Shown here: positions 2,326 to 14,528 of the stretch, one piece after another
Numbering within the stretch: the first letter of the stretch is position 1
How the letters are laid out: the number at the start of each line of letters is the position of its first letter
DNA from: a virus
Length of the DNA stretch: 21,945 bases
Direction: 5' to 3' (one strand)
IMG/VR virus record: IMGVR_UViG_3300044678_003079
Location: 1 to 21,945 of that record
Program-made: the position numbers and the translations under genes
Notes under the pieces: generated by a model
What the model saw: the letters and a program-made list of their open reading frames with translations, nothing else
Told to the model about the DNA's origin: nothing
Databases searched by the model: none

Positions 2326-3306
2326 TCATGTCCTGCATAGCAGCTGATGCCTGGCCATGAATAGGTTCGTAAGGGCAGACAACACATTCACCTTGCAGCG
2401 ATTCTTCAACATGCCGCGTAACCGGGTCTTCTGGAAGCCGAATTGACGCTTGATCACGCGAAACGGGTGTTCAACTTTGGCGCGGATGTGAGCCTTGGCT
2501 GTCTCGATCAGCTCATCCACCCTCCCCTCGGGCGTGTCTGGCAGCACTCGCCGCTTCCCGGGTCGCATGGCAACCCGAAAGCCGATGCCCTTGCCTTCCA
2601 TCTCGTCGCGCTTCTCAATCCCTTGGTAGCCGGCGTCGGCATAGACCACCGTCTCCTCGCCGTGAAGCAGATCAGCCGCTGGCGTTAGGTCGTGCACATT
2701 GGCGGCAGTGGTTTCCACCGAGTGGATCAGCCCGGTGTCCTTGTCCACGCCGATGTGGACTTTCATGCCGAAATACCACTGGTTTCCCTTCTTGGTCTGA
2801 TGCATCTCGGGATCCCTCTCCTTCTTCTCGTTCTTGGTCGAGCTAGGAGCCGCGATCAAGGTTGCATCGATGATGGTGCCCTGCTTCATGGCCATGCCGT
2901 TCGCCTTGAGGTGCGCTTTTACTACCTCAAAGATCTGATCGCCCAGATCGTGCTTCTCCAACAGGTGCCGGAACGCCAGGATCGTGGTCTCATCAGGGAT
3001 CCGGTCAGTGATCAGTGCGATGCCAGCGAATCGGCGCATCGTCGGCACCTCGATTAATGCATCCTCCATGGCTGGATCGCTGAGGTCATACCACTGCTGC
3101 AGCAGATGAATCCGCAGCATGGTTTCCAACGGATAAGGCGGGCGACCACCCTTGCTCGTCGCCTTGGGGTAGTGGGGCTCGATCAGGTCGATCAGCGCCT
3201 TCCATGGCACAACGACCTCCATCTCCGCAAGGAAGCGCTCGCGTCTGGTGCGTTTTTTTGCAGTGGTCTGCTCGTAATCTCCGAAGCCAAGCTGCTTGCT
3301 GCCCAT
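2326..3306 (-). CDS. IS5-family transposase
   Basis: The product is 326 residues from the preferred ATG (MGSKQLGFGDYEQ); an upstream in-frame start at 3327 would add seven residues. It carries the IS5-type DDE catalytic triad: Asp147 in IIDATLI, Asp224 in VYADAGYQG and Glu279 in RAKVEHPFRVIKRQFG. The RxxxE...K spacing of the E region is as expected (Arg275, Glu279, Lys286). The N-terminal part contains the family's VPWKALIDLIEPHYPK and GRPPYPLETMLRIHLLQQWY segments. The length is normal for the family, with no frameshift or internal stop, so the enzyme is probably functional. It catalyses cut-and-paste or copy-out movement of the surrounding element. Confidence 0.95.
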   Translation of the reverse strand: MGSKQLGFGDYEQTTAKKRTRRERFLAEMEVVVPWKALIDLIEPHYPKATSKGGRPPYPLETMLRIHLLQQWYDLSDPAMEDALIEVPTMRRFAGIALITDRIPDETTILAFRHLLEKHDLGDQIFEVVKAHLKANGMAMKQGTIIDATLIAAPSSTKNEKKERDPEMHQTKKGNQWYFGMKVHIGVDKDTGLIHSVETTAANVHDLTPAADLLHGEETVVYADAGYQGIEKRDEMEGKGIGFRVAMRPGKRRVLPDTPEGRVDELIETAKAHIRAKVEHPFRVIKRQFGFQKTRLRGMLKNRCKVNVLSALTNLFMARHQLLCRT

Positions 3307-3358
3307 CAACCCAGTCCATACCTGCAATCACAGGCCAATTTTCGCGCAGGTGGGCTGG

Positions 3359-4622: not shown

Positions 4623-4639
4623 ATGCACGGGCCGTGCAT
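4623..4639. promoter_or_regulatory. 17-bp palindrome upstream of integrase
   Basis: ATGCACGG-G-CCGTGCAT is a perfect inverted repeat with 8-bp arms around one base. It ends 42 bp before the preferred integrase start and overlaps an alternative GTG start at 4634. It could be a binding site controlling integrase expression, a recombinase arm or core site, or a hairpin in the leader transcript. The sequence alone does not decide between these. Confidence 0.4.
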
Positions 4640-4681
4640 CGGTCGCAGGTCTGCTCCCCGTCCGTTTCGTATTCGCCGCCC

Positions 4682-5686
4682 ATGGCCTCGATCACTGCCC
4701 AAAAGGGCCGGCTCTACCTGCTGGCCAGCCTGCCGCGGCGCGACGGGGCTCCAGGGCTGCAGCAGACCCGCATCGCCCTGCGGCTGGACGACACGCCGAT
4801 CAACCGCCGGGCCGCCGCGAAGCAGCTCAAGACCCTGGAGCAGCAGTTGGAGAGCGGCACCTTTGAATGGGCCTACTGGCTGGACGAGGCATCAGGGACG
4901 ATCACGTGGCGCGAGGCCATTGCCAGGCTCTACCGGGCTCGGGTGGTGCTCGGCCGCACGGGGCAAAGCACGTGGGAGATCAACTATTTGGGGCGACTGC
5001 GGCAGATCCAGCCAGCCAGCGCCTGCACCACCGCCAGCATGGCCAAGGCTCTGGAGCGCTACGACCGCAGCACGTGCAGCTACAAGGAGCTGTTCTACCT
5101 TCTGCGGCATCTGGCCAGGTTGGTGGCGGTGCCGTTCCCGGAGGTGCCGTTGCCCACCTACAACCAGGCCCAGTTGGTGGCGGTGCCCACCGACGAGCAG
5201 ATCATTGCGTGGGTGGAGGGGGCGCCCGATCCCGTGCGGTGGTACTGGGGGATGATGGCTTGCTACGGCCTGCGGCCTCATGAGATTGAGGGGGCGGCGC
5301 TGATCGATCGGAATCTCTGCCAGGTGGCGGATGGCACCAAGACCGGGTTCCGCACGGTGGTGCCGCTGCCCCGTGAGTGGGTAGAGCGGTTCGGGTTGCG
5401 GGATCGGCGGTTGCGGTTGCGCCTAGAGGGAAGCGCCGATCGGCCGGATGCGGTCAGCAAGTGGTTGCACAAGGAGCTTCGCCGGCAGGGGTTGCCGTGG
5501 CGGCCTTACTCCCTGCGCCACGCCTACGGCGGGAGGCTATGGCGAGAGGGCGGCAGCAGGCTTGACATCTACACCGCTGCTCGCCTGATGGGTCACACCC
5601 CAGGCCAGCACTCCCGGACCTACCGCGCTCACATTCAGCCGCACCAGGTGGCAGAGGCGGCGGAGAGGGCGTTAGGGGGAGGCTGA
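4682..5686 (+). CDS. int: Tyrosine recombinase / phage integrase
   Basis: The product is 334 residues from ATG 4682; a GTG at 4634 inside a palindrome would add 16 residues. The N-terminal third resembles an arm/SAM-like DNA-binding region. The C-terminal catalytic domain shows Arg198 in YGLRPHEIEG, Lys220 in DGTKTG as the likely beta-hairpin lysine, box II as YSLRHAY (Arg279), His305 in RLMGHT and the nucleophile Tyr314 in SRTYRAH. The usual first histidine of the HxxR motif is tyrosine (Tyr276). The length fits phage and genomic-island integrases. Its 3' end overlaps the convergent HTH gene by 15 bp. It presumably catalyses integration and excision of the element. Confidence 0.9.
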   Translation: MASITAQKGRLYLLASLPRRDGAPGLQQTRIALRLDDTPINRRAAAKQLKTLEQQLESGTFEWAYWLDEASGTITWREAIARLYRARVVLGRTGQSTWEINYLGRLRQIQPASACTTASMAKALERYDRSTCSYKELFYLLRHLARLVAVPFPEVPLPTYNQAQLVAVPTDEQIIAWVEGAPDPVRWYWGMMACYGLRPHEIEGAALIDRNLCQVADGTKTGFRTVVPLPREWVERFGLRDRRLRLRLEGSADRPDAVSKWLHKELRRQGLPWRPYSLRHAYGGRLWREGGSRLDIYTAARLMGHTPGQHSRTYRAHIQPHQVAEAAERALGGG

Positions 5687-5902
5687 GGGCTGCCCCGTCC
5701 CCGGCGCCACCGCCGCAACATTCACCCGCACGCAGCGCCTGCTGCTACCCACGGGCGCCAGGTCGATCAGCTCCCGGCCCCAGCGCCAGCGGGATTTGCG
5801 GTTGGCGTCGGCCTCGTGGATGAGCCTTTTGATATGGCGATCGGAAACCCCGAGGGCCTCGGCAGCTTCCGCAACGGTCAGCAGCACGCGAGCGGCGGCC
5901 AT
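5672..5902 (-). CDS. Small HTH protein, xis-like
   Basis: The product is 76 residues from ATG 5902; an in-frame TTG at 5908 adds two. Residues 8-30 (LTVAEAAEALGVSDRHIKRL) form a winged-helix/MerR-type HTH of the sort found in excisionases and small phage regulators, followed by a basic stretch (RKSRWRWGRELI). The start overlaps the stop of the preceding gene by one base (TGATG), making it the last gene of a four-gene operon. Its 3' end overlaps the integrase 3' end by 15 bp on the other strand. An excisionase or directionality factor fits the size and position, but it is not transcribed with the integrase as many xis genes are. Confidence 0.75.
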   Translation of the reverse strand: MAAARVLLTVAEAAEALGVSDRHIKRLIHEADANRKSRWRWGRELIDLAPVGSSRRCVRVNVAAVAPGTGQPSASP

Positions 5903-6336
5903 CAGCAACGATCCTCCGGGTCACACTGCTGCTGCTCCCTCTTTGCCAACCGTTCCGGCAGCGGCGGCAGCGGACCGGCCATGCCGTCCAGGGTGGCCCA
6001 GAGGTAGACGCCTTCCACCACCTGGCTGTCGTGGCCCTGAAGGTTCCAACGCACCAGGCGCCTGACGGCCTCCCTGGCTGTAGCCATAGCGCTCCGCAGC
6101 CGCTCGTCCTCCTGCCGCAGCTCGCGCACGCATTCGGGACACCCCCAGGCGTTGGTTGGTTGCTGGCCGTGGGTGGGGCAGTTCTGAAGACGGAGGCGGG
6201 CAGCTTCGGCGCGCCCTGCATTTCTCCAATAAACGGCCAAAAGCCTATTCGCTGCGTTCAATTCGTCTTCCAGCCGACGGATCGTGCGCCACGGGGTCAG
6301 CAGGCGGGCGAAGGCGCGGAGGTTGCCGTTGCTCAT
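5902..6336 (-). CDS. Putative zinc-binding coiled-coil protein
   Basis: The product is 144 residues, rich in Arg and Glu. It has predicted helices at about 15-50 (RRLEDELNAANRLLAVYWRN) and 70-100 (RELRQEDERLRSAMATAREA) flanking a possible metal knuckle: Cys53-x2-His56-x9-Cys66-x2-Cys69. Such a finger between coiled coils suggests a DNA-binding or scaffolding role, but no family is recognised. It overlaps the upstream ASCH gene by 4 bp (ATGA) and the downstream HTH gene by one base, so it is translationally coupled with both. Confidence 0.65.
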   Translation of the reverse strand: MSNGNLRAFARLLTPWRTIRRLEDELNAANRLLAVYWRNAGRAEAARLRLQNCPTHGQQPTNAWGCPECVRELRQEDERLRSAMATAREAVRRLVRWNLQGHDSQVVEGVYLWATLDGMAGPLPPLPERLAKREQQQCDPEDRC

Positions 6337-6728
6337 AGCTGCACCCCCGGAACATCAAAAAAGCCGAGCTGACCCTTGAAGGGAATAAACTCCAGCGGCT
6401 TTGGATCCTGCAGGACAAACCCATAAGGGCCTTGAAACCATGGCGAATCAGACTGGTAAACGCAATCCACAAGATTTACGCTGCCAATGATGCCGCCGCG
6501 AGGCAGGTGGGTTGGCTCAAGATCATCAAGTCTGACTGGGTCAAGGATGCAAGTCGCAAAACTGGCAAAAGCCCTAGCCTTTATGTATTCCCTTTTTGTC
6601 ATACCTTTAGCCGCATGGATCAAGATCCGCCCTCGCACTTTTGCCTCCCATGTGCGGTTTTCAATGTTCTTGCCAGCCAGCAGGATCAAGCTGGCCCATG
6701 GCTGGCGGATGGATAGGGCGAGGGTCAT
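6333..6728 (-). CDS. ASCH domain-containing protein
   Basis: The product is 131 residues and almost entirely an ASCH domain (PUA-like beta-barrel). It starts with the diagnostic LSIRQPWASLILLAGKNIENR segment, followed by TW, GRILIHAAKG (33-42), GGIIGSVNLVDCV (about 77-89) and GPYGFVLQDPKPLEFIPF near the end. ASCH proteins are thought to bind RNA or modified nucleotides, and one member (YqfB) hydrolyses N4-acetylcytidine. They recur in phages and mobile elements. It overlaps both neighbours by 4 bp in a minus-strand operon. The substrate cannot be read from the sequence. Nucleic-acid or nucleoside processing, possibly linked to host defence or its evasion, is inference. Confidence 0.87.
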   Translation of the reverse strand: MTLALSIRQPWASLILLAGKNIENRTWEAKVRGRILIHAAKGMTKREYIKARAFASFATCILDPVRLDDLEPTHLPRGGIIGSVNLVDCVYQSDSPWFQGPYGFVLQDPKPLEFIPFKGQLGFFDVPGVQL

Positions 6729-7027
6729 GGCTGCGTCCGGCCTTGATTGACGGCGCGGATCAGCTGCTCAGGGCATTGCCTGACGGTTTCGGCCACCATC
6801 AGCTGCTGAAACGACGGGTCGCGCATCTCTGAGGACCAGAGATAGACGTTGTCGGCAATGCCCACGCGCACGGCTGCCTGAATGTTCAGGTCGGCGCCTA
6901 GGGCCCGGCAGATCGAACCGGCCGCGGCCCAGGCCGCAGTGCCCACGCCGGCATGGGCTGGCGCCGCATGGCAGGCGCCGAGCGTCAGCAGGGCGGTGGT
7001 GATCGCAAAGCGGGAAAACGATGTCAT
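6725..7027 (-). CDS. Small exported protein with signal peptide or lipobox
   Basis: The product is 100 residues from ATG 7027 (MTSFSRFAITTALLTLGAC); a longer frame reaches 7102 but adds a non-signal-like segment. The N-terminus is a classic signal: short basic n-region, hydrophobic core, then either a lipobox (LGAC at 16-19) or a type I site (APAHA before Gly). The mature part is about 75-80 residues with two further cysteines (SICRALGAD, VRQCPEQLI), which could form a disulfide in the periplasm. It is first gene of the four-gene operon and overlaps the ASCH gene by 4 bp. An exported protein near an integrase suggests superinfection exclusion or another lysogenic-conversion function, but this is inference. 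Confidence 0.7.
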   Translation of the reverse strand: MTSFSRFAITTALLTLGACHAAPAHAGVGTAAWAAAGSICRALGADLNIQAAVRVGIADNVYLWSSEMRDPSFQQLMVAETVRQCPEQLIRAVNQGRTQP

Positions 7028-7123
7028 TGATCCGGGTCGGCTCAGTCCGGGGACGATCGGATCATACCCCCACAGCCGAACTGATGTATTGTTGTTGCGC
7101 ACTCACAACGTAGCGATCTCAAC

Positions 7124-7372
7124 ATGCCCACACTCCTTCTCCCCGTTCTGCCAAAGCCCGCCTCTCGACCCCCTGCGCGGGTTCTACATCCCCAGTTCCG
7201 GGCCCGCCGCCCCCAACGATCAGCCCCTGCCCCTTGCTGCAATGCCGGCCTGATTGCCATCTGCCTATCTGGTGTGGCCCTGGTCGCGGCGCTGGTGGCT
7301 TTCTCGATCGTGCGGGACATGGCGGCGTTTAATGGGCCTGCACAGCCCATGGCCGCTCCGCTTCGCCCGTGA
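7124..7372 (+). CDS. Small single-pass membrane protein
   Basis: The product is 82 residues. The first 38 are Pro/Arg-rich and basic; residues about 42-62 (LIAICLSGVALVAALVAF) form one strong transmembrane helix, followed by a short Pro/Ala-rich tail. The basic N-terminus predicts a cytoplasmic N-tail. It is divergent from the exported-protein operon across a 96-bp gap and points toward the tail-fibre genes. A holin-like or spanin-like role is possible by size and location, but there is no family match and no neighbouring lysozyme, so I leave it unassigned. Confidence 0.5.
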   Translation: MPTLLLPVLPKPASRPPARVLHPQFRARRPQRSAPAPCCNAGLIAICLSGVALVAALVAFSIVRDMAAFNGPAQPMAAPLRP

Positions 7373-11644: not shown

Positions 11645-12093
11645 TGAACTGGATCGAGGGCCTGCTGGATCACCTCGCCACGAAGCTGGCGCTCAAGGTC
11701 CGCGCCCAGCTGGATGGTGCGATCGATGCCGCGCTGGATCGGGCGGAAGACCGGATCGACACGGCCTTTGAGGGGCTGGAGGAGCGGCTGCATGCAGCGG
11801 CCACCAAGCGCATCGCAGACCTGAAGGTGACGCTGGGGCCGGTCCTCCAGTTGCAGCAGCAGATCGAGCCTCTGGAGGCGGCGGTGAAGCCTGCCCTGGC
11901 TCTGCAGCAGCAGATCGAGGCCATCAGCCCGGAGCGGCTGCAGGCTGCCGCCGAAGCCGCCGGAATGATCCCAGCCAAAGAAATGAAGGCCCAGAACGCC
12001 TTTGCAGCCTCATCCGCGAGTGATGCCGCAAGGGACCACCTGCGCAGCCGCTTGACGCCGCCCCGGCCGTGGAAGGAGATCCCTGATCGATGA
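11644..12093 (+). CDS. Coiled-coil phage protein
   Basis: The product is 149 residues from ATG 11644; a GTG one codon earlier is also possible. It is almost wholly helical, with heptad-like Leu/Ala spacing: LDHLATKLALKVRAQLDGAI, ALDRAEDRIDTAFEGLEERL, LQLQQQIEPLEAAVKPALAL, QQQIEAISPERLQAAAEAA. There is no signal peptide or zinc motif. The C-terminus is basic and Pro-rich (RSRLTPPRPWKEI). It overlaps the upstream stop by 1 bp and the downstream polyvalent gene by 4 bp (ATGA). A scaffold or accessory structural role is plausible from size and coiled coil, but unproven. Confidence 0.65.
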   Translation: MNWIEGLLDHLATKLALKVRAQLDGAIDAALDRAEDRIDTAFEGLEERLHAAATKRIADLKVTLGPVLQLQQQIEPLEAAVKPALALQQQIEAISPERLQAAAEAAGMIPAKEMKAQNAFAASSASDAARDHLRSRLTPPRPWKEIPDR

Positions 12094-14528
12094 GTCGCCA
12101 CCAGTCCCTGCTGGATCGCCTCTCGGCCATCGAGGCCCAGCTTGTCTCGACAAACCGGCAGGCCCTGCCCCGGCAGCCCATGGCCCTGCGGCATGACGCT
12201 GGCGATCGGGTCTCCCCGGTGCTGCAGGAGGTACTGGCCGAAGTGCTCCCCGGCGCCCTGGTGCTCGACTGGCGGCAGGAGGGTGCTGCCCATGCCGGGC
12301 GGATGGCCGCCGATGGCCTGGTCTACCGGTTCCGTATCGATGCCGAAGGCGTCGGCTATCGCCCCGCTTGGGAGGGGGTGCTGCAGCGTGGCTGGGAGCT
12401 GCGATCGGATTCGTTCCTGCAACTGCGGGCCCCCGGCTCCCGGATGGACTTCCGCCGCACCCGGGCCGGCAGTGGCCAGAAGCGGAAATGCGCGACGGGC
12501 TACGGCTGCGGCAACGCCTGCATCTCCCTCCAGAAGGAGTGCCGGATCGCCCCCCGTTCAGCGCTCGGCAAGGGCCGCCTGCGGCGCCTCCAGCAGCTGG
12601 CTGCCGCCGGCGACCAGTCGGCCAGGGCCACTGCCAGCCAGGTGCAGGCCTCCCGCGGGGCGGCCGCAGCGGCCCTGCAGAAGGACCGCACCACCCAACG
12701 GGTGCAGAAGCTGCTCGAGCGGCCGGAGATTGCCGAGTTCCTGCGCACCGGCAAGCTCCCATCCGGGGCCAACAGCTCCACCGAGCCCGGGACCGTCCGG
12801 GAGATGAAGCCAGGGGAGATCGGCTTCGATCCCTCCCGGTTCCAGTACAAGCTCAACGCCACCGCCACCACCGGCGAGGTGGGCAGCCTGTCGGGGGTGC
12901 GCAAGTGGGACGCCAACCTCTCCGGCGTGATGGCTGTCTGGAAGGACCCAGGCGACGGCAAGGTCTACGTGATCAATGGCCATAACAGGCTGGCCCTGGC
13001 CAACCGCCTGGGGGCGGAGGCCGTCACCGTGCGGTTCCTGAACGCCGCCACCGCCACCGAGGCCCGGGCGATCGGGGCCCTGCAGAACATCGCCGAGGGG
13101 GCTGGCAGCCCAATGGATGCGGCCAAGTTCTTCCGCGACACCGGCATCAAGAGCCAGCAGGACGTGGAGGCCCGGGGCCTGCCCCTGGGCAGCGGCCAGG
13201 CCTCCAAGGGGCTGAGCCTCAGCAAGTTGCCTGGCGACGTCTTCAACGCCGTGGTGCGGGGTGACCTGACCGTAAACCGCGGGGCGATCATCGGCGGCAG
13301 TGGCCTCGATGACACCAAGCAGCGGGAGGTGTTCAAGATGATCGGCTCCCGTAAGGCCATCACCGATCAGACCCTGCAGGAGCTGGTGGAGCATGCCGCT
13401 GCCAGCGTGCAACGCACTCAGACCACGATGAGCCTGTTCGGCGAGACCGAGGAGGCCAAGGACAACCTGCTTACCCGGGCCAAGCTGTCCGCCGGTCTGA
13501 AGGCCAAGATCGCCCGGGAGAAGCGCCTCTTCTCCACCGTCAGCAAGGCCAAGGCCGCCAGCAGCCTGACCGAGAAGGGCGGGAACGTGATCAACCAGGA
13601 GCAGAGCGCCAAGGTGGCCGGCGAGGCCAGCGAGGCCCTGGGGGTGTTCGAGCGGCTGAAGAGCTCCTCTGGCCCGATCAGCTCCGCCCTAAACCGTGCC
13701 GCCGATCGGGTCGAGGCTGGCGAGGCCGAGGCCACGGTGCGGAAGGAGCTGGAGCAGGATGTCTTCAAGGCGGTGCAGGCAGAGCTGGAGGCGGTGGGAC
13801 TGCGCAAGCGGCCCTGGGCCGACAGCCTGCAGGAGCGGATCGATGCCCTTAAACGGAAATGCAGCACCGGCTATGGGTGCGGGTCGGCATGCATCTCCCT
13901 GCGGAAGGAATGCCGCAGCCAGCCCCAGTCGGCCATGGGGAAGGAGCGAATGCGCAAGCTGCTGGCCCTGGCGGCCGGCGGCACCAGCGGCCAGCGGGGC
14001 ATCGCCCCAGTGCGGGCCCAGGAGGCCGCCGGCCTGGCCGCCGGGATTGAGCAGCAGCGAGGGGCCAAGGCCGGCCAGCTGCGCGGTGCTCGCCAGCAGG
14101 CCGCGGCGAAAGCGGCTGCAGCCAAGCCTGCTGAGCCTGGTCAAGAGGCTGTTAAGCTCCGCAGCGAAACGAAGGGGAGGAGTGCAAATATGGCATTGGC
14201 CCCGTCTTACAGACGCGTTGCATTAACAAAAGAGTCGATTCAGGGCAGGCTGACACGTCGGTCCAAGCGAGAACGTGAACTCTCTAGCCTTACCGAAACG
14301 CAAAAGGTCGCGGCCAAAAAAGTGAGCCATCGCAGGCAAACCTTTTTAACTTTTGTGTCAGGGCTGGCAATAAAGCATGGGGCCAAACACAAGGCGACCC
14401 AAGAAGAAAAAGATATGGCGTGGAAGAGTGCGTTCCTTTCAAGGCCGATTTACAGCACGCGGCAGAAAATAACTCCTGACTTTGGCGCGAAGACGCTTGA
14501 GGCGCGGGGAATTAGATACAACTATTGA
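12090..14528 (+). CDS. Polyvalent-type protein with DdrB-like ParB domain and duplicated Cys motif
   Basis: The product is 812 residues. The centre (about 240-340) is a ParB-superfamily domain of the DdrB-like type: FDPSRFQYKLNA, then VRKWDANLSGVMAVWKDPGD, VYVINGHNRLALANRLGAE with the INGHNR motif at 295-300, and EARAIGALQNIAEGAGSPMD. It is flanked by two near-identical cysteine motifs, KCxTGYGCGxACISLxKECR, at residues 131-152 and 588-609. From memory, this combination recurs in the large multi-domain 'polyvalent' proteins of phages and conjugative elements, which may be injected with the DNA to protect or modify it. The last roughly 120 residues are Lys/Thr-rich and coded by visibly AT-richer DNA (from about 14160), hinting at a swapped C-terminal module. 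The start is coupled to the upstream gene by ATGA. Confidence 0.8.
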   Translation: MSRHQSLLDRLSAIEAQLVSTNRQALPRQPMALRHDAGDRVSPVLQEVLAEVLPGALVLDWRQEGAAHAGRMAADGLVYRFRIDAEGVGYRPAWEGVLQRGWELRSDSFLQLRAPGSRMDFRRTRAGSGQKRKCATGYGCGNACISLQKECRIAPRSALGKGRLRRLQQLAAAGDQSARATASQVQASRGAAAAALQKDRTTQRVQKLLERPEIAEFLRTGKLPSGANSSTEPGTVREMKPGEIGFDPSRFQYKLNATATTGEVGSLSGVRKWDANLSGVMAVWKDPGDGKVYVINGHNRLALANRLGAEAVTVRFLNAATATEARAIGALQNIAEGAGSPMDAAKFFRDTGIKSQQDVEARGLPLGSGQASKGLSLSKLPGDVFNAVVRGDLTVNRGAIIGGSGLDDTKQREVFKMIGSRKAITDQTLQELVEHAAASVQRTQTTMSLFGETEEAKDNLLTRAKLSAGLKAKIAREKRLFSTVSKAKAASSLTEKGGNVINQEQSAKVAGEASEALGVFERLKSSSGPISSALNRAADRVEAGEAEATVRKELEQDVFKAVQAELEAVGLRKRPWADSLQERIDALKRKCSTGYGCGSACISLRKECRSQPQSAMGKERMRKLLALAAGGTSGQRGIAPVRAQEAAGLAAGIEQQRGAKAGQLRGARQQAAAKAAAAKPAEPGQEAVKLRSETKGRSANMALAPSYRRVALTKESIQGRLTRRSKRERELSSLTETQKVAAKKVSHRRQTFLTFVSGLAIKHGAKHKATQEEKDMAWKSAFLSRPIYSTRQKITPDFGAKTLEARGIRYNY

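What the first reader, a model, noticed from the sequence alone, without database searches (positions are those of the whole stretch)
6333..7027. Exported protein coupled to an ASCH protein next to an integrase
The operon at 7027-5672 joins, by 1-4 bp overlaps, a signal-peptide/lipobox protein, an ASCH (PUA-like) protein, a Zn/coiled-coil protein and an xis-like HTH protein. Exported prophage proteins are often superinfection exclusion factors, and ASCH domains act on RNA or modified nucleosides. The combination is not one I know and could be a lysogenic-conversion or anti-phage unit.
Basis: partly seen in the sequence, partly recalled or inferred. Interest (0 to 1): 0.72.

Follow-up and report, generated by a model that had tools for sequence, protein, structure and literature searches.

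The report
Mosaic cyanophage operon beside its integrase
Four small overlapping genes beside a cyanobacterial virus's integrase are real, but relatives show them to be interchangeable parts rather than one machine; the lasting piece is a small exported protein of unknown function found so far only in these viruses.

Summary
On the minus strand an exported protein (7027-6725), an ASCH protein (6728-6333), a Zn-motif/coiled-coil protein (6336-5902) and an excisionase-like HTH protein (5902-5672) overlap by 4, 4 and 1 bp, tail-to-tail with a tyrosine integrase.

The exported gene was found in 20 other viral contigs (3-4 clades), always between a conserved single-TM/tail block and the integration module. 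All four genes together occur only in this window, and ASCH directly follows the exported gene in only 4 of 21. ASCH is a widespread phage gene (phrog_3193; 506 viral matches) with very diverse neighbours, and its modelled fold matches the DNA-binding ASCH domain of human TRIP4 (Z 17). The HTH gene belongs to the integration module: 41 of 41 integrase loci carry it. A serine recombinase replaces the whole module in other relatives.

The exported protein is a genuine, purifying-selected gene family without a Pfam, PHROG or PDB match. Its position suggests a prophage-expressed envelope protein, perhaps superinfection exclusion, but this is inference. Ordinary phage mosaicism plus one unnamed phage-specific exported family.

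The parts
6725..7027 (-). Exported small protein (EXP), 100 aa, lipobox-like LGAC at 16-19 and PAHA site at 23-26; three conserved Cys (19, 40, 85)
   Evidence: no credible Pfam, PHROG, NCBIfam, PADLOC or PDB match
6333..6728 (-). ASCH-domain protein, 131 aa, phrog_3193, TRIP4-type ASCH fold
5902..6336 (-). Mosaic small protein with CPTH..CPEC motif and coiled-coil-like middle; conserved N- and C-termini, variable centre; the Zn motif is absent in several relatives
5672..5902 (-). Excisionase-like HTH protein (XIS), probable recombination directionality factor of the adjacent integrase
4634..5686 (+). Tyrosine integrase (conserved start probably ATG 4682)
7124..7372 (+). Conserved single-TM small protein, divergent to EXP (96-bp intergenic gap)
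   Evidence: homologues beside EXP in the divergent clades too
7091..7109 (.). Inverted repeat GTTGT-N9-ACAAC in the divergent intergenic region, candidate operator (weak)
   Evidence: one exact match in the window, none in 100 shuffles; kept in six close sequences by inspection of the alignment, not seen in L139; no sigma-70-like promoter found

Best explanation
This is the leftward lysogeny-side operon of a temperate cyanophage, assembled by ordinary mosaic gene exchange at start/stop junctions. (1) EXP is a conserved, phage-specific exported protein anchored at the boundary between the tail block and the integration module. (2) ASCH and the Zn/coiled-coil gene are accessory genes inserted between EXP and xis in one clade; ASCH most likely binds phage or host DNA (or modified bases) through its PUA-like cleft. 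(3) The HTH protein is the excisionase of the adjacent tyrosine integrase and travels with it. The genes are probably co-transcribed but functionally independent. Shown: gene structure, overlaps, selection on EXP, variable gene content, constant xis-integrase pairing, ASCH family (and its fold by a confident model). Inferred: DNA binding by ASCH, directionality function of XIS, and that EXP acts in the envelope of the lysogen, where superinfection exclusion is the single likeliest role (about 0.3).
For: EXP in 21 contigs including the window, in synteny with P461/R117/tail genes wherever covered. Homology between close relatives stops exactly at the EXP stop codon: 91-99% identity in the EXP bins, 26-38% (unrelated) after it. 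XIS with integrase in 41/41 integrase loci; serine recombinase in its place in L001, L002, L004, L005, L006, L008 and L162-L171, the last with a fused remnant of the xis N-terminus. ASCH: 506 viral matches; 96 neighbouring ORFs match 86 PHROG families, the commonest in 8 members, the named ones including primase, helicase, DNA-binding protein and excisionase. ASCH model pLDDT 90.7, TRIP4 ASCH-dsDNA complex Z 17.2, rmsd 2.1 over 125 residues.
Against: The 4-bp overlaps would allow translational coupling and hence a shared role within this one phage. A different small exported family (phrog_9917) also sits directly before ASCH in about eight other prophage contigs, so an exported protein-ASCH pairing recurs, though with unrelated proteins. 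Co-transcription and DNA binding were not measured.
Confidence: 0.72

Rival explanations
1. The four genes form a dedicated anti-phage or lysogenic-conversion system in which the exported protein and the ASCH protein act together.
For: Tight overlaps, lysogeny-side location, export signal, PUA-like nucleic-acid-binding fold.
Against: Quartet unique to the window; EXP-ASCH adjacency in 4 of 21; no credible PADLOC match.
Confidence: 0.06
2. EXP is a lysis or virion-release protein (o-spanin-like lipoprotein) working with the adjacent single-TM protein.
For: Small possible lipoprotein next to a conserved single-TM ORF near tail genes.
Against: EXP is transcribed away from the late genes, with xis; the TM partner has only about 20 residues after its TM, unlike i-spanins; no family match.
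Confidence: 0.12
3. The ASCH protein is a YqfB-like amidohydrolase or other nucleoside enzyme that remodels modified nucleosides.
For: ASCH fold; YqfB is an ASCH amidohydrolase on N4-acetylcytidine (PMC6972931); K20 and R25 match YqfB Lys21 and Arg26.
Against: The nucleophile position (YqfB Thr24) is an invariant Glu23 in all 36 aligned relatives; nearest structures are TRIP4 ASCH domains.
Confidence: 0.07
4. EXP is a passive or decaying gene that happens to sit between modules, with no current function.
For: Truncated in L007 and L008.
Against: Purifying selection, invariant Cys/Trp pattern at 48% identity, intact in the other contigs where it is completely covered.
Confidence: 0.08

Closest known systems
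phrog_3193 / TRIP4-type ASCH proteins of phages
   Same: Full-length profile match, conserved LSIRQPW, KxxENRxW and RGGI(I/V)G signatures, same fold as human TRIP4 ASCH
   Different: Operon context differs from that of other carriers; function of the phage family not established in the literature found
Ltp-type superinfection-exclusion lipoproteins (S. thermophilus phage TP-J34; PMC3952083) and the periplasmic Glo protein of V. cholerae (mentioned there)
   Same: Small exported protein, Ltp encoded in the lysogeny module near the integrase (works-like resemblance only)
   Different: No profile match found; different hosts; activity untested; EXP has a three-Cys pattern
Excisionase-family HTH proteins (TIGR01764, HTH_17)
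   Same: Above curated cut-offs; strictly paired tail-to-tail or close by with a tyrosine integrase
   Different: Directionality activity not tested
Synechococcus phage S-CBS4
   Same: Nearest isolate by major capsid protein (43% identity); cyanobacterial host
   Different: No megablast similarity between the window and any phage record; EXP not found in the phage collection

Membership tests
ASCH superfamily (PF04266) | Profile score above the curated cut-off and PUA-like beta-barrel fold | tested here: met
   23.8 vs 21.2 bits; model pLDDT 90.7, TRIP4 ASCH Z 17.2
YqfB-type ASCH amidohydrolases | Thr-Lys-Glu catalytic triad with Thr24 as nucleophile (PMC6972931) | tested here: not met
   Position is invariant Glu23 in 36 relatives; Lys20 and Arg25 present; a Thr24Ser mutant keeps activity in YqfB, Glu was not reported
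Nucleic-acid-binding ASCH (TRIP4-like) | Binding of dsDNA or RNA | not testable with these tools
   Only fold and sequence similarity to TRIP4 ASCH-dsDNA structures
Excisionase / recombination directionality factor | Excisionase-family HTH profile | tested here: met
   TIGR01764 29.4 vs 28.8; PF12728 27.5 vs 27
Excisionase / recombination directionality factor | Linked to and controlling the cognate integrase | tested here: inconclusive
   Linkage met in 41/41 loci; control of excision not testable
Tyrosine recombinase (integrase) | Profile match to phage integrases | tested here: met
   phrog_1 E 5.6e-14; Arm-DNA-bind_2 23.2 vs 22; the Pfam catalytic model is below its cut-off (16.6 vs 27.1)
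Bacterial lipoprotein | N-terminal signal with lipobox ending in Cys | tested here: inconclusive
   LGAC in the window clade, ASAC in L139, TGAC in L162; a competing AxA signal peptidase I site is conserved too; no signal-peptide predictor available
Ltp-type superinfection exclusion | Sequence relationship to Ltp | tested here: inconclusive
   No significant Pfam or PHROG match for EXP; no direct comparison with Ltp was made
Ltp-type superinfection exclusion | Blocks DNA injection of incoming phage when expressed from the prophage | not testable with these tools
   Needs an experiment
Known anti-phage defence systems (PADLOC) | Significant match to defence-system profiles | tested here: not met
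   EXP, ASCH: none; Zn and HTH proteins only weak matches of 12-16 bits

The most novel reading that the evidence does not exclude
EXP together with the divergent single-TM protein is a new two-part envelope system of freshwater cyanophages, for example a superinfection-exclusion pair expressed from the prophage, kept constant while the integration machinery and accessory genes beside it are exchanged.
Probability: 0.17. Interest if true: 0.5.

Novelty: new member of a known kind. Interest (0 to 1): 0.28.

Why it matters
It shows how a persuasive-looking operon with perfect gene overlaps can be produced by module shuffling, so overlap alone is weak evidence for a functional unit. It also defines a small, phage-specific exported family fixed at the integration locus of picocyanobacterial phages, where knowledge of lysogeny and superinfection exclusion is thin, and shows tyrosine and serine integrases trading places at one locus, with a remnant of the old excisionase gene in one clade.

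Tried and rejected
EXP by structure: the AlphaFold model from six sequences was unusable (pLDDT 45), so no fold search was made. Host homologues of EXP: weak matches in the host family were inspected and look like compositional or signal-peptide look-alikes; the empty genome searches for EXP and ASCH have no positive control and show little. EXP in isolated phages: none. ASCH-EXP coupling as a general rule: rejected after tallying ASCH neighbours. The antisense ORF over EXP (6882-7253 +): rejected, antisense frames carry stops inside the EXP span in the window and most relatives. ASCH in L005 is not cleanly intact: one base more in a C-run near its start shifts the frame, perhaps a sequencing error. 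The in-window promoter and terminator scan found nothing. PADLOC and NCBIfam gave no function for EXP.

Full report
What is there. The window is a virus record; its major capsid protein is nearest to Synechococcus phage S-CBS4 (43% identity) and its integrase has relatives in two cyanobacterial genome bins (87% and 75%). On the minus strand four ORFs overlap: EXP 7027-6725, ASCH 6728-6333, a Zn-motif/coiled-coil ORF 6336-5902 and an HTH ORF 5902-5672, with overlaps of 4, 4 and 1 bp, ending tail-to-tail with the tyrosine integrase 4634-5686.

EXP is a real gene. Six close sequences give pooled pN/pS 0.36 in the EXP frame; one antisense frame shares the low value, but antisense frames are interrupted by stops in the window and in most relatives. 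An alignment-based scan found a second set at 49-51% identity; 44 of 100 positions are invariant in an alignment that includes one of them, among them C19, C40, C85, W33 and W64. Its N-terminus offers a lipobox-like motif and an AxA site, both retained, so export is likely but its type is open. Nothing credible in Pfam, PHROGs, NCBIfam, PADLOC or the PDB sequences matches it, and no phage isolate in the collection carries it.

The operon is a mosaic. I counted 21 contigs with EXP (window, L001-L008, L139, L140, L162-L171). Several are near-identical, so they represent perhaps three or four clades. In every contig with enough flank EXP lies between the tail-gene block (R117, R121, and a single-TM ORF at 7124-7372 that I add here) and the recombinase. 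What follows EXP varies: ASCH in four (window, L001, L004, L005), serine recombinase directly in two (L002, L006), XIS-integrase directly in three (L003, L139, L140), a xis remnant and serine recombinase in ten (L162-L171), and EXP cut short and joined to another gene in two (L007, L008). Only the window has all four genes. Homology among close relatives stops precisely at the EXP stop codon, the mark of exchange at gene boundaries.

The integration module. All 41 integrase loci examined carry XIS tail-to-tail or close by, so XIS belongs to the integrase and not to EXP or ASCH. In other relatives a 434-438-residue serine recombinase (PF00239 101.9 bits) takes the place of XIS and integrase. 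In L162-L171 the first ~22 residues of XIS remain, fused to a different tail, which I read as a fossil of the swap in that lineage.

ASCH. It matches phrog_3193 (4.8e-53) and 506 viral stretches. Its confident model (pLDDT 90.7) fits the TRIP4 ASCH domain bound to dsDNA (Z 17.2, rmsd 2.1 over 125 residues), well above ZmASCH (about 10) and YTH domains (about 6.5). The YqfB nucleophile Thr24 is replaced by an invariant Glu (PMC6972931), so YqfB chemistry is unlikely. Its neighbours across phages are extremely diverse; named ones include primases, helicases, DNA-binding proteins and excisionases. I infer a DNA-related accessory role. TRIP4 lacking its ASCH region binds DNA very poorly (PMC10076317).

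The Zn/coiled-coil ORF keeps its two ends (PWRTIRRLE near the start, GMxGPLxxLPExLA near the end) while the centre changes; the full Zn motif is present in the window, L089 and L011 only among seven compared, and partly deleted in L005.

Mechanism. EXP is likely secreted to the periplasm or tethered to a membrane of the lysogen. Its place in the lysogeny-side operon resembles that of Ltp, a lipoprotein encoded in the lysogeny module that blocks DNA injection (PMC3952083). This is an analogy by position and export only; I give superinfection exclusion about 0.3, a lysis role 0.12, with the remainder unknown.

Limits. No transcript data, no signal-peptide predictor, no usable EXP structure, and a collection that may omit the nearest relatives of the window. 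Counts are of contigs, not independent events.

Noticed in passing
   Followed up: partly
L001, L002, L004, L005, L006, L008, L162-L171 versus window 4634-5902: A serine recombinase replaces the tyrosine integrase plus xis at the same locus in related cyanophages; L162-L171 keep a fused N-terminal remnant of xis.
   Followed up: partly
window 2326-3327 (-): A DDE transposase gene (PF01609, IS5-like by its DUF772 domain) lies between the Mu-F-like head gene and a 116-aa ORF; close relatives have only a short gap or small ORF there.
   Followed up: partly
L050, L055, L057, L062, L063, L067, L074, L081 (just upstream of ASCH): A different small exported family (phrog_9917, MTRLALCLLLLATGASA...) lies directly before ASCH by a 4-bp overlap in other prophage contigs; unrelated in sequence to the window's exported protein.
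   Followed up: partly
window 12090-14528 (+): An 812-aa ORF with a repeated Cys-rich KRKC.TGYGCG.ACISL.KECR motif and a phrog_21 (portal-annotated) match in its middle region.
   Followed up: no
window 7091-7109: Inverted repeat GTTGT-N9-ACAAC between the divergent exported and TM genes, kept in six close sequences but not in L139; candidate operator.
   Followed up: partly
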